Made by a program: the position numbers and the translations under genes
Shown here: positions 2,617 to 31,812 of the stretch, piece by piece
Position numbering within the stretch: position 1 is the first letter of the stretch
How the letters are laid out: the number at the start of each line of letters is the position of its first letter
The notes under the pieces: generated by a model
Databases searched by the model: none
The model's input: only the letters and a program-made list of their open reading frames with translations
What the model was told of the DNA's origin: nothing
Origin: Basidiobolus meristosporus CBS 931.73
Taxonomy: Eukaryota; Basidiobolomycota; Basidiobolomycetes; Basidiobolales; Basidiobolaceae
Assembly: GCA_002104905.1 (NCBI GenBank)
Contig: MCFE01000837.1
Coordinates: forward strand, 1 to 31,812
Length of the DNA stretch: 31,812 nucleotides
Direction: 5' to 3'

Positions 2617-2682
2617 TCACTATTCACTATTCATTATTCACTATTCACTATTCATTATTCACTATTCACTATTCATTATTTC
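2617..2682. repeat. Simple tandem repeat of CACTATT/CATTATT heptamers
   Basis: The 3' flank of the RasGAP gene contains about nine consecutive 7-nt units alternating between cactatt and cattatt, with a higher-order period near 21 nt. It lies between the stop codon and the AATAAA signal, so it is probably in the 3' UTR. It looks like slippage-prone low-complexity DNA, and no function is implied. Confidence 0.8.
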
Positions 2683-10103: not shown

Positions 10104-11501
10104 TTATTTGTGCTCAACGGAGACAACCTTGCCAAGCATGACAGCGGTGTTACCATCGAGGAAAGCAATACGAGAAAGACCCTCGCAGTTCTTGAAGCTG
10201 TCGACGATAAGGGGTTGGATGGGCTCGAAGACAACCTCGGCGGCCTCGGAAGCCTTGAGGGAGTGGGGGGACTCGAGCTTCTTACGGCCAGTCTCCTTAC
10301 CGATCTTCCACTTGAGCTCGGTGATCTTGCAGGCAGCGCGACCGCAACGGACGAAACCAATGGGGGAGTATCCGGGCTTGACTTCTCCTGGGATATCGAG
10401 GGTTTGGATTTGGGCAGTGAAGTTCTTGACGGGGCGGAGAGTGTTGTCGCTCTTGTAGACCATGACATCACCGGCACGGGGCATGTTACCCTTGTCAAGA
10501 CCCTTGATGTTCATACCGACGTTGTCACCGGTTTGGGCGAACTCGACACGCTTGTGGTGCATTTCGACGGTGAACACCTTACCGGTACAGGGGTTACCGG
10601 CGGTGTGGGTGGGAAGGAAGACAACTTCAGTGTTGGGGGTGACGGTACCTTGCTCGACACGTCCGGCAACGACATCTCCGACACCCTTGATCTTGTAGAT
10701 ACCGGAAACGGGGAGACGCATGGCGGCGTCAGCGTTACGGGAAGGAAGGACAACCATGTCGTTCAAGGCGGTGAGGAGGGTCTCGACGTGGATCTTGTCA
10801 CCGTTTTGGTTGATGACATCTTGTCCCTTCCACCAGGTCATCTTCTCGGACTTCTTCAACAAGTTGTCGCCTTGCCATCCGGAAATGGGGAGGATAGGAA
10901 CGGATTGCTCAACGAACTCCTTCTTCCATCCGACCTTGATAAGCATGTTGCGCATCTCATCACGGATTTCGTTGTAACGGTCCTCCTTGTAACCGGCGGT
11001 ATCGGAATCCATCTTGTTGACACCAATGATGAGTTGCTTGACACCGAGAAGGTTGAGGAGACGAGCGTGCTGGCGGGTTTGGCCTTGGATATCTCCGGCC
11101 TTGTGGTCACCCTTTTGGATGGCGGTGGTGAAGTTACCATCGGCGGGGACCATGAGGAGGGCGACATCAGCTTGAGCGGCTCCGGAAATCATGTTCTTGA
11201 TGAAATCTCTGTGTCCGGGAGCATCAATGATGGTGTAATGCCACTTCTCGGTGAAGAACTCCTTGGTGGTGCAGGAGATGGTCACACCACGTTCACGTTC
11301 GTCCTTTTGGCGATCCATGTAGAAAGCGAAGGCGAAGGAAGACTTACCGAGACGCTCGGCTTCTTGCTTCAACTTGTCCATTTCACGCTCGGGGATACCA
11401 CCGAGCTCGAAAAGAAGACGACCGGTAGTGGTAGACTTACCGGAATCGACGTGACCGCAAATAACGATGGAAAGATGGTTCTTGTTGTCAGTGGCAGACA
11501 T
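10104..11501 (-). CDS. EFL: EFL, elongation factor-like GTPase (copy 1)
   Basis: This translation GTPase is thought to do the job of EF-1alpha, bringing aminoacyl-tRNA to the ribosome as EFL-GTP. It is 465 residues and intronless. G1 is GHVDSGKSTTTGRL, G3 is DAPGHRDFIKNM, and G4 is GVNKMDSD. It is not canonical EF-1alpha: the N-terminus is MSATDNKNHLSIVICGH, helix A reads LLFELGGIPEREMDKLKQEA, and the effector region is TISCTTKEFFTEKWHY. The segment KGDHKAGDIQGQTRQHARLLNLLG is the EFL hallmark (shown here as KGDHKAGDIQ and GQTRQHARLL). The predicted protein is identical to copy 2 at 21712-23109 as far as I can compare by eye. A GATAAATA box is at 11564-11571 (minus strand), and AATAAA is at 10069-10074. 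Confidence 0.95.
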   Translation of the reverse strand: MSATDNKNHLSIVICGHVDSGKSTTTGRLLFELGGIPEREMDKLKQEAERLGKSSFAFAFYMDRQKDERERGVTISCTTKEFFTEKWHYTIIDAPGHRDFIKNMISGAAQADVALLMVPADGNFTTAIQKGDHKAGDIQGQTRQHARLLNLLGVKQLIIGVNKMDSDTAGYKEDRYNEIRDEMRNMLIKVGWKKEFVEQSVPILPISGWQGDNLLKKSEKMTWWKGQDVINQNGDKIHVETLLTALNDMVVLPSRNADAAMRLPVSGIYKIKGVGDVVAGRVEQGTVTPNTEVVFLPTHTAGNPCTGKVFTVEMHHKRVEFAQTGDNVGMNIKGLDKGNMPRAGDVMVYKSDNTLRPVKNFTAQIQTLDIPGEVKPGYSPIGFVRCGRAACKITELKWKIGKETGRKKLESPHSLKASEAAEVVFEPIQPLIVDSFKNCEGLSRIAFLDGNTAVMLGKVVSVEHK

Positions 11502-21711: not shown

Positions 21712-23109
21712 TTATTTGTGCTCAACGGAGACAACCTTGCCAAGCATGACAGCGGTGTTACCATCGAGGAAAGCAATACGAGAAAGACCTTCGCAGTTCT
21801 TGAAGCTGTCGACGATAAGGGGTTGGATGGGCTCGAAGACAACCTCGGCGGCCTCGGAAGCCTTGAGGGAGTGGGGGGACTCGAGCTTCTTACGGCCAGT
21901 CTCCTTACCGATCTTCCACTTGAGCTCGGTGATCTTGCAGGCAGCGCGACCGCAACGGACGAAACCAATGGGGGAGTATCCGGGCTTGACTTCTCCTGGG
22001 ATATCGAGGGTTTGGATTTGGGCAGTGAAGTTCTTGACGGGGCGGAGAGTGTTGTCGCTCTTGTAGACCATGACATCACCAGCACGGGGCATGTTACCCT
22101 TGTCAAGACCCTTGATGTTCATACCGACGTTGTCACCGGTTTGGGCGAACTCGACACGCTTGTGGTGCATTTCGACGGTGAACACCTTACCGGTACAGGG
22201 GTTACCGGCGGTGTGGGTGGGAAGGAAGACAACTTCAGTGTTGGGGGTGACGGTACCTTGCTCGACACGTCCGGCAACGACATCTCCGACACCCTTGATC
22301 TTGTAGATACCGGAAACGGGAAGACGCATGGCGGCATCAGCGTTACGGGAAGGAAGGACAACCATGTCGTTCAAGGCGGTGAGGAGGGTCTCGACGTGGA
22401 TCTTGTCACCGTTTTGGTTGATGACATCTTGTCCCTTCCACCAGGTCATCTTCTCGGACTTCTTCAACAAGTTGTCGCCTTGCCATCCGGAAATGGGGAG
22501 GATAGGAACGGATTGCTCAACGAACTCCTTCTTCCATCCGACCTTGATAAGCATGTTGCGCATCTCATCGCGGATTTCGTTGTAACGGTCCTCCTTGTAA
22601 CCGGCGGTATCGGAATCCATCTTGTTGACACCAATGATGAGTTGCTTGACACCGAGAAGGTTGAGGAGACGAGCGTGCTGGCGGGTTTGGCCTTGGATAT
22701 CTCCGGCCTTGTGGTCACCCTTTTGGATGGCGGTGGTGAAGTTACCATCGGCGGGGACCATGAGGAGGGCGACATCAGCTTGAGCGGCTCCGGAAATCAT
22801 GTTCTTGATGAAATCTCTGTGTCCGGGAGCATCAATGATGGTGTAATGCCACTTCTCGGTGAAGAACTCCTTGGTGGTGCAGGAGATGGTCACACCACGT
22901 TCACGTTCGTCCTTTTGACGATCCATGTAGAAAGCGAAGGCGAAGGAAGACTTACCGAGACGCTCGGCTTCTTGCTTCAACTTGTCCATTTCACGCTCGG
23001 GGATACCACCGAGCTCGAAAAGAAGACGACCGGTAGTGGTAGACTTACCGGAATCGACGTGACCGCAAATAACGATGGAAAGATGGTTCTTGTTGTCAGT
23101 GGCAGACAT
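21712..23109 (-). CDS. EFL: EFL, elongation factor-like GTPase (copy 2)
   Basis: This is a second EFL gene, 465 residues, intronless and on the same strand as copy 1, 10.2 kb away. I see only about six base differences from copy 1 over 1398 nt, all synonymous, so the proteins are identical as far as I can tell. The ATG at 23109 is chosen by alignment with copy 1; the frame is open three codons further (MFI) without support. G motifs and EFL hallmarks are as in copy 1. The flanks are unrelated: here an AATAAATAC box lies at about 23167-23175 (minus strand) and a different 3' UTR follows. Sequence identity stops within a few bases of both ends of the coding region. Confidence 0.95.
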   Translation of the reverse strand: MSATDNKNHLSIVICGHVDSGKSTTTGRLLFELGGIPEREMDKLKQEAERLGKSSFAFAFYMDRQKDERERGVTISCTTKEFFTEKWHYTIIDAPGHRDFIKNMISGAAQADVALLMVPADGNFTTAIQKGDHKAGDIQGQTRQHARLLNLLGVKQLIIGVNKMDSDTAGYKEDRYNEIRDEMRNMLIKVGWKKEFVEQSVPILPISGWQGDNLLKKSEKMTWWKGQDVINQNGDKIHVETLLTALNDMVVLPSRNADAAMRLPVSGIYKIKGVGDVVAGRVEQGTVTPNTEVVFLPTHTAGNPCTGKVFTVEMHHKRVEFAQTGDNVGMNIKGLDKGNMPRAGDVMVYKSDNTLRPVKNFTAQIQTLDIPGEVKPGYSPIGFVRCGRAACKITELKWKIGKETGRKKLESPHSLKASEAAEVVFEPIQPLIVDSFKNCEGLSRIAFLDGNTAVMLGKVVSVEHK

Positions 23110-24377
23110 GATGAACAAAGTTAAACAATTGTCAAACGACGAACTTTTTGGATGGTGGATGCTAGTGTATTTATTAGACCAGAAGTTGTAAAAAAAAAAT
23201 CTTGGGGCATTGCGTCTCGGCCCCTAATATTTTTTTTTCTGGCTAGCTATGGTTACCACAATATGTTCAAGGGATGAGTAAGCTCTTCCTATATATGGTA
23301 GCCCTATTAATGAATCTCTCTATAATCCTATTGTTGATAATTTCAAGTGGCAGTGGTACTAAATTCTAATAGAAAGTATTGCATTTTTTGCTTATAGAAT
23401 TGATATCAAATCCAAACTTTGCTGATCGAATCAGTGGCCTCTGTTCAATTTAATTGGGGTTAAAATGATAAGCGTTTCAGTTGAGGGCATATCCGCTCAG
23501 CGGAAAACACCGTTTGATTTCCGCGCAGCATTATGAAAATTCTCGCCACATCAAATTTCGGTGTCCTATCGTCACTGCCGGAATTATCGGCCAGGTACGG
23601 TTAGTACCGTAAATCAAACAAGAGTTAGATTACTGGTGATAGTAGTGTCCTCAACATTGTCAGCACCCTGTTGATTGCTTTGAGGCGTGGCCTTGATTAA
23701 ATAACAATCCACCTACCTGCCCAGAATAAATAACAATTTACTTACCACCTCACGTACTTCCAACCTTCCGAGACATGACCTTTCTTATCTTTTAATAGTC
23801 CCACGTTCCTAATCCATACAAGATAGCTGCACTCCGACACTCTGAAATTGCTAACCAAATACGAGTGGAGTGGTGTTCTCATCGGAACGGAACGATTCAA
23901 CATGATTATGGACATCACATGTAAGATGAGCTCATCATAGTTACAGATGTATGATTTTCAACAACAACCGAATCAATTAGAATTCATTGACGGATGACGA
24001 ATCCCCTCACCAAGGATGGTGGGAACAAATTCCCAACATTTCGGATTCTTTATGTCAAACTTAAGCTCAGAATAAGTAACCACATTCTGTGTTTCCCGAA
24101 GGAATCATATGATCCTGAGGTGGTTGGCAAGCAGAGGCCGCTGCGTCACGACGAGTCACACTCACAAGCTGTCAAAAATGCTGCAAGTCCGCGGTCCATG
24201 GCCGTGCCAATCCATCTCTTTCCAGTTCTGCATTCTAGGGTGTTTCTGAAACCGGAGCGGTTAAATGTAGCTCAAGTGCTCCTTTTTCCCATCGGGGTTA
24301 TTGATAGTTCAGGGTTTTGTACAAAGCATTAGCATTCTCGTGTGTTTCGATCTTCCTCGTCCTTGGTTTCCTGCTTC

Positions 24378-27389: not shown

Positions 27390-27650
27390 CAACGTGGAGG
27401 TCACATTTCATTCCAACCTGTTCCTGCACCTAGTGTTGAGCGGGAATCTGCCAAGAATGCCATTGAAGCCACACTTCAATTGGAAAAGGATGTCAACAAG
27501 TCCATGTTAAACCTCCACAACATCTCTGCCAAGCAAGGTGACCCACGCTTATGTGATTGCTTAGAAGGACACTACCTCACTCAACAAGTTGAGGCCATCA
27601 AGAAAATTTGGATATGCTTATGCAATTGAACTGTGCGGGTGGTGGGGTTA
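27390..27650 (+). pseudogene. Ferritin fragment, truncated at both ends and frameshifted
   Basis: The frame from 27390 reads QRGGHISFQPVPAPSVE, then AKNAIEATLQLEKDVNKSML, then GDPRLCDCLEGHYLTQQVEA. This is the middle to C-terminal part (end of helix B loop, helices C and D) of a eukaryotic non-haem ferritin. The family pattern RGGR-(V/I)-LQ, ALELEK, NDPHLCDFLE-HYL and EQV-AIKK is clear. A TAA immediately precedes it, and helices A and B are missing. Near 27605-27611 the frame shifts, after which LDMLMQLNCAGGG follows, matching the family's GDM-TQL-RAGPG. Homology ends at about 27645 exactly where GGGTTAGG and a retroelement tail begin. It cannot make a working ferritin. Confidence 0.8.
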
Positions 27651-27703
27651 GGAGGGGGAAAGACCGTCAACAATAGGTGAAATATTTATTTCAGCTGAAA
27701 CTA
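27645..27703 (-). mobile_element. Diverged LINE/SINE 3' tail next to a telomere-like unit
   Basis: GGGTTAGG (27645-27652) leads into a 50-nt block that aligns by eye with the LINE 3' tail at 28068. The shared pattern is gggggaaagaccgtcaac, aggtgaaatatttatttcag and tgaaac. It is the most divergent of the five tails and so probably the oldest insertion. On the minus strand this is the 3' end of an element, facing the centromere. Confidence 0.65.
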
Positions 27704-28060
27704 AGACCCTATGAAAAGTCTCACAGTTAGAATTCATTGGATTTTAGCTGGTGTTTAGCTGGTATGCAGATGGGATTTTTCTGGCCTTTTGTTAATTTTT
27801 TTTCTTAGGTAAAAAGCTGTTGTAAGAGTTTGGGAGATTTTGAAAGCATTTAGGAGTGCAGGTAGATTATGTGGCTTTCACTTAATAATTTGCTACATGT
27901 AAGAGTGATATCATTACATCTATGTGGTCTTGGCAAAAAAAACTGTAGAATATGCTTAGAAAGGTCCTAAGAGCATGTGTACACAGTGTGTGGCTGTTTG
28001 GATAACTAATTGAAGTTTCATATTCAGGGTACCTGATATTTTGGTGAAAATATTTTAAGT
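27704..28060. other. Decayed retroelement body or spacer, no gene seen
   Basis: This AT-rich stretch lies between two element tails. By position it should be the body of the element whose tail is at 27645-27703, but I recognise no reverse transcriptase motif or promoter in it. Confidence 0.35.
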
Positions 28061-28067
28061 TAGGGTT

Positions 28068-29882
28068 AGGGGGGAGACAGTCACCAACAGGTGAAATCTT
28101 TATTTCAGTTGAAACAAAGAAGCCAGTGCTACTGTTGTAGCTTTGATACAAGAGTGTGTAGCTGAGTGGAATTTGTAGGTAAGTTTACAAGAAGTGATGA
28201 TAGTTCTTCAGTGCTCAAGAAACTGTTCAGGGGGAAGGGGGGTAGCAAGAGGGGTAAGAGTGATTTGTGAACAATATTAATGAGGGGAATATGATAAGCA
28301 TTGATATTCATCATAAAGGGAGTGTGCCGCTTCAGATATTGCTGCCAAAGGTCTGTCAAGTACTTCAGGTAGGCCAGCTTGGGTTTTTCTGACTGCAGAA
28401 TATAATGAGCAAACTTCTTGACTTCAGGATCTCCAAGTATAGTTCTCCAGCAGGAGCCAGGTGTAGTGTGGTGTGATCTCTTCCAGGTCTTGATCAGTGG
28501 GTTGTTGCAGTGGTGAAGTCTGAGATATAATCTGGTTCTAAGGTAGAGTAGTCTGATCTTAAAGGGCATAAACCCAAAAGCACCAAGAATGGCATGTCTG
28601 TAGGGGCATTCAGGCAGATGAGGCACCAGGGATGTAATGCACCAGACTGCAAGCTTGTCAAGTTCAGTGCAGTCTCTAGAAGTAAGAGAGAGAAGTGGTA
28701 AGCCAAATTCCAGGACAGGGGAGACAAACTGCCTGAGTAGAAGGAGGCAGCTGGGAGCTGAAGTTATAGGAGGAGTTACAGCCAGTAGCTTGTGGAGTGC
28801 TTGTCTTGCCAGGATAATTCTCTTCTTCAGTTGGGCTCCAGAGTCTAGTCCAGTAGGAAGGAAAGGAAAGCCAAGATATGTAGCAGAAACTTGGGCAGGT
28901 AGAGTGCAGTTGTCTAAGTTGATAGGACAACCCAAAGGTACTGTCTTTGCAATGGAAAGCTGGAGATTATTCTTCTGCAGATACTGGTGGATGGACTAGG
29001 AGTCTTGTTGCACATTGGAGGAGGATATTCTGATGTCATAAGCAAAGAGAGTAACCAGGCAGTCAGCTGAGAGTCTTGGGAAGTCATTCAGGAAGATGGC
29101 AAACAGCATAGGACCAAGCACAGAGCCTTGAACCACTCCATTAGGAACTGAGAACACAGCTGATTGCTCACTTGGGTGCAGAATTCTTGCTCAGAGTAGA
29201 GCTCCTGAGCAAGCAAAAGCTCAAACACCTTTCTGCTGATGAGCAGCAGAGATATTGGCCTGTAGGAGTTGGGATCCAGGTGCTTTCCTTTACCCATGTA
29301 CAGTGGCAGAACATTTGCAAAGGACCATTCCTCAGGAGGAGAAAGTTGAGCTGAGCATTGCTGAAACAGTGGAAGCAGAAGAACAGACATGGTCTTTGTA
29401 CTAGTCTTCAAAAGCTCATAGGAGATTGTGTCCACACCTGGAGCAGTAGAGTTGGGAAGCCTCTTGAGCACATTATGGACTCTCCCTTGATCAAGTGCAA
29501 GTGGGATGGGCAGAGTCTTGAAGTCAGGATGAAAGCCAGGAGTTGAGTACTGCTTTGTAGAGAAGAAGATGTTAGCCAGCTGTTCTGTTGAAGGTAACTT
29601 CCTGGAAGAGGGCCTCATTGCCCTGTGGAGTCTTGACACTGTTTGTTGTATTCAAGAGAAAAGTATAATAAAACTCTTGAATGAGTTAACTGAACCCAAG
29701 TGACAACTAAGTGCAGAATCTTAAAATTGTCAAGAGTGCCCAAAATATTAGCAGAGAGGTTCTGGTCTAATATTGGTCTTGGATATAGCTGGGTTGGCTA
29801 TAAAGACAATGATATTTGTTTGCTAGGCAGGCTAGGCTTGGTGTTCTTTGGAGTGCTAGATATACTAGGCTTGGATAGAAAC
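28068..29882 (-). mobile_element. Decayed non-LTR retrotransposon (LINE), 3' end facing the centromere
   Basis: On the minus strand this element runs from an undefined 5' end (after 29640) to a 3' tail at 28068. It contains reverse transcriptase remnants (separate entry) and a 3' tail with an AATAAA signal. Its last bases are a run of C (GTCTCCCCCC) followed directly by TAACCCTAA, that is, telomeric repeat. There is no poly(A) tail. The endonuclease region is not visible, so the copy is 5'-truncated or its 5' part is too decayed. The final 92 nt are repeated at 29890-29981 with one mismatch. Confidence 0.8.
28129..29639 (-). pseudogene. LINE reverse transcriptase, broken
   Basis: Two reading frames carry RT parts. 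29088-29639 has the fingers and palm start: RLPNSTAPGVDTISYELLK and WSFANVLPLYMGKGKHLDPN followed by SYRPISLL. 28129-28935 carries the post-RT region (ATYLGFPFLPTGLDSGAQLK and following). Between them the frame that reads VPNGVVQGSVLGPMLFAIFL is shifted relative to the first, and the usual 60-80 residues between these motifs are missing. The catalytic motif reads FAYD at about 29035-29046, where active LINEs have FADD. A TAG stop lies in frame at 28996-28998. The enzyme is therefore dead on at least four counts. The NSYRPISLL and FADD-type motifs place it with LINEs, not Penelope-like elements. Confidence 0.8.
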
Positions 29883-29889
29883 TAGGGTT

Positions 29890-29981
29890 AGGGGGGAGAC
29901 AGTCACCAACAGGTGAAATCTTTATTTCAGTTGAAACAAAGAAGCCAGCGCTACTGTTGTAGCTTTGATACAAGAGTGTGT
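29890..29981 (-). mobile_element. 5'-truncated LINE copy (92-nt 3' tail)
   Basis: This block is a near-perfect copy of 28068-28159 (one visible mismatch, GTGCT versus GCGCT). It is preceded by TAGGGTTAGG (29883-29892) and stops abruptly where the SINE tail begins. It is a classic 5'-truncated insertion, in the same orientation as the longer LINE. Confidence 0.85.
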
Positions 29982-30500
29982 AGGGGAGGAAAGTCACCAA
30001 GTGGTGAAATCTTTATTTACTTATGACAAGTATCTAAAGAAGCCAAGTTAATCTGAAGTAATTCCTAGAAAGCTAGGTCTGAGAGATATCTTCCTGGTAA
30101 GCCAGGTCTGAGAGTTGAGAAGCTAAGTGGTACTCTATTTCCTAGTTAGCTAGGTCTGAGAGAGGTTTCCTGGAAAGCCAGGCCTGAGAAGTGAGAATCT
30201 GAATATATCTGAGCTAAGTTATACTGGTTTGCGGTAGCTGAATTGTGGCCGGAATGGCCAGTAGACTGGGGGAACTGAGAGGAATTTCTGGGCGATCACT
30301 GGCCAAATTTACTAGGCAAATCTGGCCAATTAGCATTTCAAGGATTTCAGCCAATCAGAGCCTTTACTTTGCCTGATGGTTGATCAAGCCATCTCCCAAT
30401 GAGCACACATCAATTTATTAATCAAATTTTGCTGGATCCAGGATTTGAACCCACAACCATGGGTATGGAAGGGTTAGGGATAACCACAAGGCTAAGTGTT
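29982..30500 (-). mobile_element. tRNA-derived SINE sharing the LINE 3' tail
   Basis: Read on the minus strand, the head has a pol III box A (TAGCCTTGTGGTTA, 30481-30494) and box B (GGTTCAAATCC, 30441-30451) about 30 nt apart, as in tRNA genes. The body holds four short hairpins (30064-30182). The 3' end (29984-30030) contains AATAAAGATTTCACCACTTG and GTGACTTTCC, which matches the LINE tail over the AATAAAGATTTCACC core and the GTGACT stretch. Sharing a 3' tail is how SINEs borrow a partner LINE's reverse transcriptase. The 5' limit is estimated from box A. Confidence 0.65.
30064..30182. repeat. Four tandem hairpins with compensatory changes
   Basis: Four units of about 25-45 nt each contain a perfect 5-bp stem with a 4-nt loop: cctag-aaag-ctagg (30064-30077), cctgg-taag-ccagg (30093-30106), cctag-ttag-ctagg (30141-30154) and cctgg-aaag-ccagg (30169-30182). 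Each is followed by TCTGAGA or CCTGAGA. The fourth stem position is A:T in two units and G:C in two, so pairing is kept despite the change. This points to selected RNA structure in the SINE body. Confidence 0.8.
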
Positions 30501-30549
30501 CTTGGTTAGGGTGTAGGTGTTATAGTAAGGGCTAGGAAAAGGTTAGAAG

Positions 30550-30621
30550 AGCAGGGGGTCTGGGGGACGCAGTCCCCTAGAGAATAAAAAAGCAGGGGGT
30601 TTGGGGGATGCAATCCCCCAT
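30550..30621. repeat. Duplicated GC-rich hairpin (two copies)
   Basis: The sequence agcagggggtctgggggac followed by gcagtcccct is repeated 41 bp later as agcagggggtttgggggat followed by gcaatccccca. Each forms a stem: GGGGAC-GCA-GTCCCC (30563-30577) and TGGGGGAT-GCA-ATCCCCCA (30602-30620). The C:G pair next to the loop in the first is T:A in the second. This may be a small mobile hairpin or a duplicated structural RNA piece. Confidence 0.7.
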
Positions 30622-31150
30622 ACTGCTCTTATACTCTTTAAATTCCCGTTGGATTACTTTTCTCTCATTCTTGGTTCTGGTCCCTTAGGGTTAGAATTCC
30701 TCCTCCTAACCCTTATCACCCTAACCATAAATATTTTTACCCTACAATTGGCACATTGTCTGCTCATATGGTGGGCATGTCTGGGCCAATATTTGTCTCC
30801 CTATACTGTCCATACACTCTGTATAAGTCTTGATGACTATTTAATTAATAAATTGTTATTTTTAATATATATCTAATAATTAATGGGATTCATCCCAATC
30901 TGACCACAATCCCATATTTTGATAAGCTTCGGGCACCATAAATTGCGCGGCCCTAATATGATAAAAAAATTCATGGCCAATACAAATTTTCTGTAACCCG
31001 ATTGCTTTTACCAAATATAAAGTGTATCCAAAAGTTCAATATATATTATGGCTATAATAGAAACTTTATTGGACACCATCGCAACTACTATTTATGTTCT
31101 ATGCGCACATGTATCCCGCGGGAATTGTAAAACTTAGCCACGTGGTACAA
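30622..31150. other. Subtelomeric spacer, no gene seen
   Basis: This AT-rich sequence contains scattered telomere-like words on both strands (cttagggttag near 30687, ctaaccctta near 30703, accctaacc near 30717) but no gene. A possible partial copy of the 155-bp repeat may lead into 31150. The scattered telomeric words suggest former chromosome ends. Confidence 0.4.
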
Positions 31151-31160
31151 AAGTGCTTTA

Positions 31161-31500
31161 ATTTTTCATCATGATAGTTTTACATGAGTTCCTAACGCAC
31201 TTTGAAAGTACGCAGTAGCCATACCCCAACAGGTTTTAAGGATGTCCACTAGCTACGTCTACTTGTGTCTATCGGGAGCCATCAATCATCAGCCGCGCAA
31301 TACTGAAATGCTTTTATTTTTCATCATGCTAGTTTTGTATGAATCCCTAACGCACTTTCATAGTGCGCGGTAACCATACCCCAACAGGTTTTAAGGATAC
31401 CCACTTGCTACGTTTACTTGTGTCTAGCGGGAGTCATCAATCATCAGCCGCGCGGTAAAAAAGTGCTTTTATTTTTCATCATGATAGTTTTACATGAGTT
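31161..31500. repeat. 155-bp subtelomeric tandem repeat (2.2 copies)
   Basis: Units start at the word atttttcatcatg at 31161, 31316 and 31471, exactly 155 nt apart. The first two units are full length with roughly 85-90 percent identity by eye (shared runs: cataccccaacaggttttaa, catcaatcatcagccgcgc). The third breaks off after acatgagtt at 31500, where a LINE tail begins. The period is close to a nucleosome repeat. Confidence 0.9.
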
Positions 31501-31550
31501 AGGGGGGAGACAGTCACCAACAGGTGAAATCTTTATTTCAGTTGAAACAA
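31501..31550 (-). mobile_element. 50-bp LINE 3' tail fused to the telomere
   Basis: This is an exact copy of the LINE tail from its 3' end (aggggggagacagtcaccaa onward) for 50 nt, then it stops at gaaacaa. The subtelomeric repeat ends immediately before it and TTAGGG repeats begin immediately after it. The junction with the repeat itself creates GTTAGGG. Confidence 0.9.
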
Positions 31551-31812
31551 GGGTTAGGGTTAGGGTTAGGGTTAGGGTTAGGGTTAGGGTTAGGGTTAGG
31601 GTTAGGGTTAGGGTTAGGGTTAGGTTAGGGTTAGGGTTAGGGTTAGGGTTAGGGTTAGGGTTAGGGTTAGGGTTAGGGTTAGGGTTAGGGTTAGGGTTAG
31701 GTTAGGGTTAGGGTTAGGGTTAGGGTTAGGGTTAGGGTTAGGGTTAGGGTTAGGGTTAGGGTTAGGGTTAGGGTTAGGGTTAGGGTTAGGGTTAGGGTTA
31801 GGGTTAGGGTAG
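31551..31812 (+). repeat. Telomere, (TTAGGG)n
   Basis: About 43 TTAGGG units run to the end of the window in the orientation expected for a right chromosome end. Two TTAGG units (31620-31624 and 31697-31701) interrupt the register, 77 nt apart. The last bases are ggtag, probably a read-end error. Confidence 0.98.

What the first reader, a model, noticed from the sequence alone, without database searches (positions are those of the whole stretch)
28068..31550. Telomere-directed LINE/SINE family with all 3' ends facing the centromere
Five element tails (27645, 28068, 29890, 29984, 31501) lie in the same orientation. Four begin directly at or within one or two TTAGGG units, and none has a poly(A) tail or an obvious target-site duplication. 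On the minus strand the LINE 3' end reads CCCCCC followed by TAACCCTAA. This fits elements whose RNA 3' end is copied onto a G-rich chromosome end. It resembles in principle silkworm TRAS/SART or Magnaporthe MoTeR elements, but it is a different family as far as I can see. An early-diverging fungus with its own telomeric LINE plus a SINE would be a new case.
Basis: partly seen in the sequence, partly recalled or inferred. Interest (0 to 1): 0.88.

Follow-up and report, generated by a model that had tools for sequence, protein, structure and literature searches.

The report
Chromosome-end LINE and SINE retrotransposons
In a Basidiobolus fungus, a small community of mobile elements (LINEs, an element that seems to carry only the first LINE gene, and a short SINE) lies at chromosome ends, apparently copied directly onto broken or nearly exhausted ends alongside ordinary telomerase.

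Summary
The window is the right end of one contig of an 89 Mb assembly, inferred to be Basidiobolus meristosporus CBS 931.73. The LINE tail core occurs 645 times exactly; of the 100 copies listed, 94 have TAGGG within 7 nt upstream. On contigs of 100 kb or more with known length, 38 of 38 listed LINE tails and 19 of 19 listed SINE tails lie within 18.4 kb of the contig end their 5' side faces. At 115 distinct joints the telomeric stub is at most 25 nt (median 9), while 17 terminal arrays have a median of 196 nt; 0 of 115 show poly(A). The LINE encodes ORF1, a TGA-CTA stop, and ORF2 with APE-type endonuclease and reverse transcriptase, so it is not of the MoTeR/FoTeR (REL) type. A second LINE, an apparently ORF1-only element and one copy of a third LINE show similar tails. 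A TERT domain is present. Best explanation: a hairpin plus C-tract RNA end is primed by GGG-3' of a broken or very short chromosome end, then telomerase caps it. New variant of a known kind.

The parts
31550..31812 (+). terminal telomere, about 43 TTAGGG units, right end of the contig
   Evidence: Tandem Repeats Finder row 31550-31810, 43.8 copies; contig C1132 is 31,812 bases
31499..31550 (-). LINE-1 stump: one TTAGGG unit, then about 50 nt of LINE 3' end, then the telomere; simplest end product
   Evidence: 98% to LINE over 54 nt; in a paralogous chromosome end (L114) the satellite runs on past this point
31149..31498 (.). 155-bp tandem satellite, broken inside a unit where the LINE stump attaches
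   Evidence: TRF; 97% to L114 2531-2880
29983..30505 (-). full-length SINE-A: tRNA-like head (by eye) at the 30505 side, tail GGGGAGGAAAGTCACC at 29983; followed at its 5' end by TTAGGG 30506-30511 and then other repeat DNA
   Evidence: 98.7% over 528 nt (29984-30511) to another copy; intact 5' end followed by TTAGGG in 15 of 15 rows, 12 distinct
29884..29982 (-). 5'-truncated LINE-1 stump (98 nt) on AGGGTTAGGG
   Evidence: 99% over 99 nt
29644..29880 (.). fragment of another repeat (LTR-like by position, inferred) next to the LINE; broken where the next stub begins
   Evidence: 92-96% to L100, L030, L014, L001, L040
28058..29643 (-). 5'-truncated LINE-1 copy with ORF2 remnants (28129-28935, 29088-29639) and its 3' tail on TTAGGGTTAGGG
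27644..28058 (-). diverged element tail of the same kind (GGGGTTAGGAGGGGGAAAGACCGTCAACAATAGGTGAAAT...); how far this element extends is not known
   Evidence: 84% over 62 nt to LINE tail; 27814-28058 has 18 matches in held loci, six printed, at 78-79%

Best explanation
These are chromosome-end-dedicated non-LTR retrotransposons of a fungus that also has a telomerase gene. Shown: among listed copies they sit at contig ends, often in arrays, with the 3' end toward the interior, on a stub of at most about four TTAGGG units. They are often 5'-truncated and capped by a long telomere or by the next element. Inferred: the RNA ends in a hairpin plus a C-tract; the GGG-3' end of the G-rich strand at a broken or nearly exhausted end pairs with the C-tract and primes reverse transcription. 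The copy becomes the new end, telomerase caps it, and after later loss the cycle repeats. LINE ORF2 proteins would also serve the SINE and the ORF1-only element through the shared hairpin tail.
For: Geometry: 38 of 38 listed LINE copies on contigs of 100 kb or more face the nearer end within 18.3 kb, 3.56 expected by chance; 19 of 19 listed SINE copies likewise, at most 18.3 kb. Stubs: 115 joints, at most 25 nt; 30 in one unit, 64 in two, 21 in three to five; 17 terminal arrays 49-259 nt, median 196, as assembled. The G-run varies from 3 to 10, as expected if GGG pairs in several registers with a C-tract. Two of 61 LINE joints have only 1 nt of telomeric match (by these are L013 and L022); in L022 (C36) a flank ending GAGAA runs straight into nine Gs with no TTA. 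Breakage: for 71 of 104 flanks another held copy runs on past the joint (rough), among them the satellite under the window's stump. Two LINE 5' ends (L070, L082) and two full-length SINEs (L030, L050) are capped directly by long TTAGGG arrays. A telomerase RNA-binding domain is present. The LINE-1, SINE-A, B and C tails share TCACC-loop-GGTGA.
Against: Short stubs may be survivors: in MoTeR arrays longer interstitial telomeres break (PMC7367193, passages). ORF2 keeps a conserved endonuclease domain (identity 51-54% to metagenomic relatives P0001, P0003, P0004 and 43% to P0007; RT 55-69%), which pure end priming would not need. 7 of the 100 listed copies are reverse; five of them lie in short contigs (C27, C217 twice, C284, C142) whose left ends show no telomere, and the left end of C291 shows none either. 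Nine of 29 right ends read are not telomeric. One array copy lies 96 kb inside C558. 6 of 100 listed tails lack TAGGG nearby. The tail fold clearly beats shuffles only for LINE-1 (z -3.5; others -0.74, -1.84, -1.55), and the best fold of tail B is not the simple hairpin.
Confidence: 0.72

Rival explanations
1. Endonuclease-dependent insertion into intact telomere: the APE domain nicks the G-rich strand inside TTAGGG arrays, ordinary target-primed reverse transcription follows, and long interstitial stretches are later lost by breakage.
For: ORF2 has an APE-type endonuclease domain with GDLN, VDW and SDH kept and 43-54% identity to relatives. FoTeR insertion is read that way, and MoTeR interstitial tracts of three or more units break.
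Against: Uniform insertion into arrays of about 196 nt would leave stubs of about 100 nt on average; 115 of 115 are at most 25 nt, also at 8 of 12 distinct intact SINE 5' ends, which have one or two units before the next tail. The motif II glutamate is Asp in LINE-1, P0001 and P0003, and Asn in LINE-3. Many flanks are broken DNA (rough count).
Confidence: 0.2
2. Stub and arrays arise by template jumping: the enzyme reaches the 5' end of one RNA and jumps to the 3' end of the next, whose RNA carries UAACCC, giving head-to-tail arrays in one event.
For: One-unit stubs between an intact SINE-A 5' end and the next tail in 7 of 12 distinct cases, and five SINE tails in C96 spaced 525-534 bp.
Against: For 71 of 104 flanks another copy runs on past the joint, so most joints lie on truncated elements or other DNA (rough); the stub varies from 1 to 5 units. 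It cannot explain single stumps such as 31499-31550.
Confidence: 0.15
3. Subtelomeric recombination spreads old end blocks; transposition is no longer active.
For: The window shares a block of about 1 kb at 95-97% with C269.
Against: 115 distinct joints differ in flank or stub. By my count of the listings, 42 of 150 RT rows have an open frame of exactly 922 aa and 30 of 98 ORF1 rows one of 523 aa.
Confidence: 0.08
4. Assembly artefact.
For: Telomeres are oddly confined to right contig ends (5821:62), and many of the contigs seen are only 12-20 kb long.
Against: Intact frames, repeated 5' ends and 115 distinct joints are hard to get from misassembly.
Confidence: 0.03

Closest known systems
Athena, endonuclease-deficient Penelope-like elements of bdelloid rotifers (PMC5537684, passages)
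   Different: Penelope-type RT; here a LINE RT with APE domain and LINE/SINE partners
HeT-A/TART/TAHRE of Drosophila (PMC5537684, passages)
   Same: head-to-tail arrays, 3' ends to the centromere, end addition (inferred here), a partner that depends on another element for its RT (PMC4700185, passages)
   Different: Drosophila lacks telomerase and has poly(A) or oligo(A) joints; here TTAGGG, a TERT domain, C-tract and hairpin, plus a SINE
MoTeR (PMC7367193, passages) and FoTeR (PMC12857005, abstract and sections 18, 19 and part 1 of 23)
   Same: fungal telomeric non-LTR elements, TTAGGG between or beside copies; MoTeR 5' ends face the tip; FoTeR has tandem repeats upstream
   Different: REL endonuclease, CRE-type clade; FoTeR has one large ORF and 3' stubs of 3-7 units (3-8 in truncated copies), MoTeR tracts half a unit to more than 20. 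Here APE type, two ORFs, stubs mostly 1-2 units, SINE and ORF1-only partners
SART1/TRAS1 of silkworm (PMC7265360, passages)
   Same: telomere specificity; APE-type endonuclease (recalled)
   Different: SART1 needs three or more repeats and a poly(A) tail and inserts into the array rather than at its end
GilT/GilM of Giardia (PMC5537684, passages)
   Same: between subtelomere and telomere, same direction, 5' truncations
   Different: no SINE mentioned in the passages read; protein relationship not tested
UnaL2/UnaSINE1-type LINE/SINE pairs (recalled, no call)
   Same: SINE and LINE share a 3' hairpin
   Different: not telomeric

Membership tests
APE-type LINE (non-LTR retrotransposon) | reverse transcriptase domain in ORF2 | tested here: met
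   RVT_1 E 2.7e-25, residues 466-678 of 922; model of the relative P0001 matches human L1 ORF2p best
APE-type LINE (non-LTR retrotransposon) | N-terminal APE-type endonuclease domain | tested here: met
   Exo_endo_phos_2 E 1.7e-4, but 21.9 bits is below the curated 27.4; AP endonucleases are among the matches of the P0001 model, from rank 46
APE-type LINE (non-LTR retrotransposon) | catalytic glutamate of endonuclease motif II | tested here: not met
   Asp in LINE-1, P0001, P0003; Asn in LINE-3, by alignment only; activity unknown. Motif names are recalled
MoTeR/FoTeR (CRE-type telomeric elements) | REL endonuclease | tested here: not met
   an APE-type domain was found and no REL match was listed (I did not check that Pfam holds a REL model); REL in MoTeR/FoTeR
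MoTeR/FoTeR (CRE-type telomeric elements) | telomeric position, 5' end toward the tip | tested here: met
   38 of 38 listed copies on long contigs face the nearer contig end; telomere actually read at 5 of those 23 contigs and absent at 3, the rest not read
SART/TRAS | insertion inside arrays with three or more repeats; poly(A) tail | tested here: not met
   94 of 115 stubs at most 2 units, 0 of 115 with poly(A)
Drosophila telomeric elements | replace telomerase | tested here: not met
   TERT RNA-binding domain found and long TTAGGG arrays; end addition itself is inferred
Athena-type Penelope-like elements | Penelope/TERT-like RT without endonuclease | tested here: not met
   RT fold closest to L1 and R2, telomerase ranked lower, endonuclease domain present; no Penelope RT was compared
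tRNA-derived SINE (SINE-A) | A and B boxes of a pol III promoter | tested here: inconclusive
   TAGCCTTGTGG and GGTTCAAATCC read by eye against a recalled consensus; ARAGORN and Rfam find nothing
tRNA-derived SINE (SINE-A) | 3' tail shared with a LINE | tested here: met
   36 of 38 nt with the LINE-2 (C) tail, 32 of 36 with LINE-1
HeT-A-like ORF1-only element (family B) | ORF1 without RT, 3' UTR and tail directly after ORF1 | tested here: inconclusive

The most novel reading that the evidence does not exclude
A fungus with telomerase runs a second chromosome-end repair route made of a retrotransposon community: LINEs whose endonuclease has lost its motif II glutamate, an ORF1-only element and the first telomere-dedicated SINE, all tied together by one hairpin plus C-tract 3' end that is primed directly by GGG-3' chromosome ends.
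Probability: 0.45. Interest if true: 0.88.

Novelty: new variant of a known kind. Interest (0 to 1): 0.73.

Why it matters
Telomere-associated retroelements are listed from insects, a green alga, Giardia, a lizard, rotifers (Penelope type) and, among fungi, MoTeR1 (passages), to which FoTeR was added in 2025. Here an APE-type LINE lineage of Basidiobolomycota lies at chromosome ends together with a SINE and an apparently ORF1-only element, while telomerase is kept. In the open-access library, five phrases for a telomeric SINE gave 0 papers, and Basidiobolus with telomere and retrotransposon gave one paper, on DNA methylation in Mucorales, seen as a listing only; other listings showed no such case by title or the start of the abstract. 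Subscription papers and preprints elsewhere are not covered. The shared hairpin and C-tract make the priming step directly testable, and hundreds of copies with near-identical tails would allow one to measure how often ends are healed by a retroelement and how often by telomerase.

Tried and rejected
Considered and rejected or left open: (1) SINE-A as partner of LINE-3 (L107): the match turned out to be an internally deleted SINE-A beside LINE-3; what I take for LINE-3's own tail is AACCGGTGGTTT plus ten C. (2) A dead endonuclease as a shown fact: only the Glu to Asp/Asn change is seen; the other motifs are kept. (3) Rfam and ARAGORN for the SINE head: nothing. (4) Naming the LINE clade: no clade-labelled references were at hand. 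A 62-row RT tree puts LINE-1, LINE-3 and six database proteins on one long branch (100/99), but 60 rows are hits to my own query, taken from the top of the list, no CRE-type or Penelope RT was knowingly included, and P0006 is a very long row. (5) Selection: of five ORF2 loci tried, three gave comparable frames; pairs differ by 16-18 synonymous and 13-19 nonsynonymous codons. About one to one is below the roughly three to one expected without constraint (recalled rule), so it hints at constraint, but the numbers are too small. (6) (598 rows) lists some sites twice, so I did not use it as a fraction of 645; I compared the 100 rows with it by eye (94 of 100). (7) The 71 of 104 is rough: at least one row is a true 5' end, and flanks that are themselves family members may be truncated copies rather than breaks. 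(8) Strand counts alone (766:78) were not used as evidence, because contigs are oriented with telomeres to the right.
Full report
Setting. The window is contig C1132 (31,812 bases) of an 89,006,234-base assembly in 1311 contigs. Two of the best protein matches to the LINE ORF2 are annotated proteins of Basidiobolus meristosporus CBS 931.73 (P0005, 97% over 26% of the query; P0006, 64% over 44%). That the assembly is this strain is my inference. The taxonomy places it in Basidiobolomycota. The right 260 bases are a telomere of about 43 TTAGGG units.

The observation. The LINE copy spans 28058-29643 with 228 nt missing inside; 29644-29880 is a different repeat; 29884-29982 is a 98-nt LINE stump; 29983-30505 is a full-length SINE; 31499-31550 is one TTAGGG plus about 50 nt of LINE tail directly followed by the telomere. 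Under that last stump a 155-bp satellite is broken inside a unit; in a paralogous end (L114) the satellite runs on past this point.

Genome-wide copies. The 48-nt tail with up to 3 mismatches occurs 766 times forward and 78 times reverse; (TTAGGG)8 occurs 5821 times forward and 62 times reverse. Contigs are thus oriented with telomeres to the right, and strand counts alone are not evidence. I therefore used positions. Of the 100 exact-core copies listed (645 in all: 602 forward, 43 reverse), 97 have known contig lengths; 38 lie on 23 contigs of 100 kb or more. All 38 face the contig end nearer to them, at most 18.2 kb away (median 4.2 kb); 3.56 would be expected by chance. The other 59 lie on contigs under 20 kb, where position says little; 54 of 59 are forward. 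For SINE-A, 19 of the rows listed lie on contigs of 100 kb or more whose length I know; 19 of 19 face the nearer end, at most 18.3 kb away.

Limits of that test. Facing a contig end is not facing a telomere. Of 29 right contig ends held in my loci, 20 are telomeric and 9 are not; of the 23 long contigs above, C1, C2, C25, C36 and C136 end in telomere, C91, C147 and C236 do not, and 15 were not read. Of 12 left ends fetched, 10 of contigs with reverse-oriented LINE copies or pieces and two of contigs with interior ones (C558, C746), only C419 begins with telomere. Reverse copies in C27, C217 (two), C284 and C142 are therefore unresolved. Seen exceptions inside contigs: a copy 96 kb inside the 218-kb contig C558, still with CCCCCCCTAACCCTAA at its 3' end and with a SINE-like tail in the same direction nearby, and a 224-nt internal LINE scrap inside what reads like a copia ORF in C746.

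The joint. Of the 100 listed copies, 94 have TAGGG within 7 nt of the tail core; 6 do not (C3:164591, C22, C36:168711, C45, C95:15586, C168:14629) (compared by eye). Four of the six were read: C3 has TTAAGGGG, C45 has TTAGGGTTAGGA, C22 has TTAGGG a little further off, and C36 has no TTA. In the loci held, 102 of 103 tails could be parsed; the G-run is 3-10 long, and each has at least 1 nt of ...TTA before it. In 115 distinct joints the stub (including GGG) is 25 nt at most, median 9: 30 in one unit, 64 in two, 12 in three, 7 in four, 2 in five. Seventeen terminal arrays are 49-259 nt, median 196, as assembled. None of the 115 joints has a T-run of 6 or more within 12 nt, the mark of a poly(A) tail. 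For 71 of 104 flanks another held copy runs on without TTAGGG at that point (rough). So elements mostly stand on DNA that ended there, with almost no telomere left, and not inside long arrays.

The elements. LINE-1 has a 523-aa open frame for ORF1 (Cys-rich N-terminus by eye; coiled coil only by Pfam matches below cut-off) and a 922-aa open frame for ORF2 in the same frame, parted only by TGA CTA. TGA was present in 10 of 10 distinct contexts found with a pattern that fixed the CTA side. TGA CTA is a known readthrough context (recalled), so ORF2 is probably made by readthrough (inferred). ORF2 has RVT_1 (E 2.7e-25) and a weak Exo_endo_phos_2 match below the curated cut-off. A model of the 62% relative P0001 (mean pLDDT 80.4) matches human L1 ORF2p best, then R2 and others, and AP endonucleases from rank 46. 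The GDLN, VDW and SDH motifs are kept; the motif II Glu is Asp in LINE-1, P0001 and P0003 and Asn in LINE-3. By my count of the listings, 30 of 98 rows matching the ORF1 start have a 523-aa frame, and 42 of 150 rows matching the RT piece have a 922-aa frame (the tool scored 150 of 1015 candidates). The 5' end reads CCTCTTTAAATTAG... in many of 20 copies, with a repeated block of about 100 nt in some, and all 20 carry CCCTAACCCTAA inside the 5' UTR; two (L070, L082) are capped there directly by long TTAGGG arrays. Whether every one of these copies is intact to its 3' end was not checked.

Partners. The exact 32-nt SINE-A tail core occurs 370 times forward and 21 times reverse. Full-length SINE-A is about 520 bp. 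Its intact 5' end is followed by TTAGGG in 15 of 15 rows, 12 of them distinct: 7 with one unit and the next tail, 1 with two units, 1 with an odd stub (L032), 1 with other DNA (the window) and 2 with a long terminal array. Family C is the 3' end of a second LINE. Family B carries an ORF1-like frame that ends about 118 nt before its tail, hence ORF1-only as far as seen. L107 holds one copy of a third LINE with its own hairpin-like tail and ten C followed by TAA. LINE-1, LINE-3 and six database proteins form one group in the RT tree (100/99) on a long branch.

Tail. The four main tails have AAATAAAGATTTCACC, a short loop, GGTGA, then a C-rich run. The fold beats shuffles clearly only for LINE-1 (z -3.5); SINE-A, B and C score -0.74, -1.84 and -1.55, and the best fold of B is not the simple hairpin. 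The stem letters do not vary among the four, so there is no covariation evidence.

Mechanism. Shown: position and orientation of listed copies, short stubs, flanks that run on elsewhere, truncated 5' sides, capping by long telomeres, and a telomerase RNA-binding domain in the genome. Inferred: the C-tract at the RNA end pairs with GGG-3' of the G-rich strand, the LINE enzyme extends it, telomerase caps the product, and LINE protein serves the SINE and family B. Whether the stub is made by one round of telomerase, was left over, or is templated by UAACCC at the RNA end is open. The main rival is endonuclease-dependent insertion into intact arrays with later loss of long interstitial tracts, as MoTeR data would allow.

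Comparison and novelty. The geometry equals MoTeR and FoTeR, whose endonuclease is REL; FoTeR 3' tracts are 3-7 units, MoTeR tracts half a unit to more than 20. The stub and truncation pattern is closest to Athena, and the division of labour to HeT-A/TART. A 2023 paper on telomere-associated elements names MoTeR1 as the fungal case (passages). My searches of the open-access library for telomeric SINEs and for Basidiobolus with telomere and retrotransposon found nothing relevant.

Noticed in passing
L064:4789-4793 (-): ORF1 and ORF2 of LINE-1 are in one frame, parted only by TGA CTA; 10 of 10 distinct contexts found carry it, suggesting programmed stop-codon readthrough.
   Followed up: partly
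whole assembly: (TTAGGG)8 is 5821 forward against 62 reverse: telomeres lie almost only at right contig ends, an odd assembly property, and the number of ends looks large.
   Followed up: partly
window 10104-11501 and 21712-23118 (-): Two near-identical elongation factor 1-alpha-like ORFs about 10 kb apart (named by eye).
   Followed up: no
window 30512-31498, L114:1894-2880, L092:1-400: A subtelomeric block including the 155-bp satellite is shared between three contig ends at 95-100%.
   Followed up: partly
G000:C880:173109-173423 (-): Telomerase RNA-binding domain in two pieces, one with a stop inside: TERT gene candidate.
   Followed up: no
L101:1018-1241: A 224-nt internal LINE-1 scrap without tail inside what reads like a copia ORF, perhaps filler at a break.
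   Followed up: no
L107:428-4383 (-): One copy of a third, divergent LINE near a contig end, tail AACCGGTGGTTT plus ten C plus TAA, Asn at the motif II position.
   Followed up: partly
window 2617-2680: Exact 21-bp tandem repeat, three copies.
   Followed up: no
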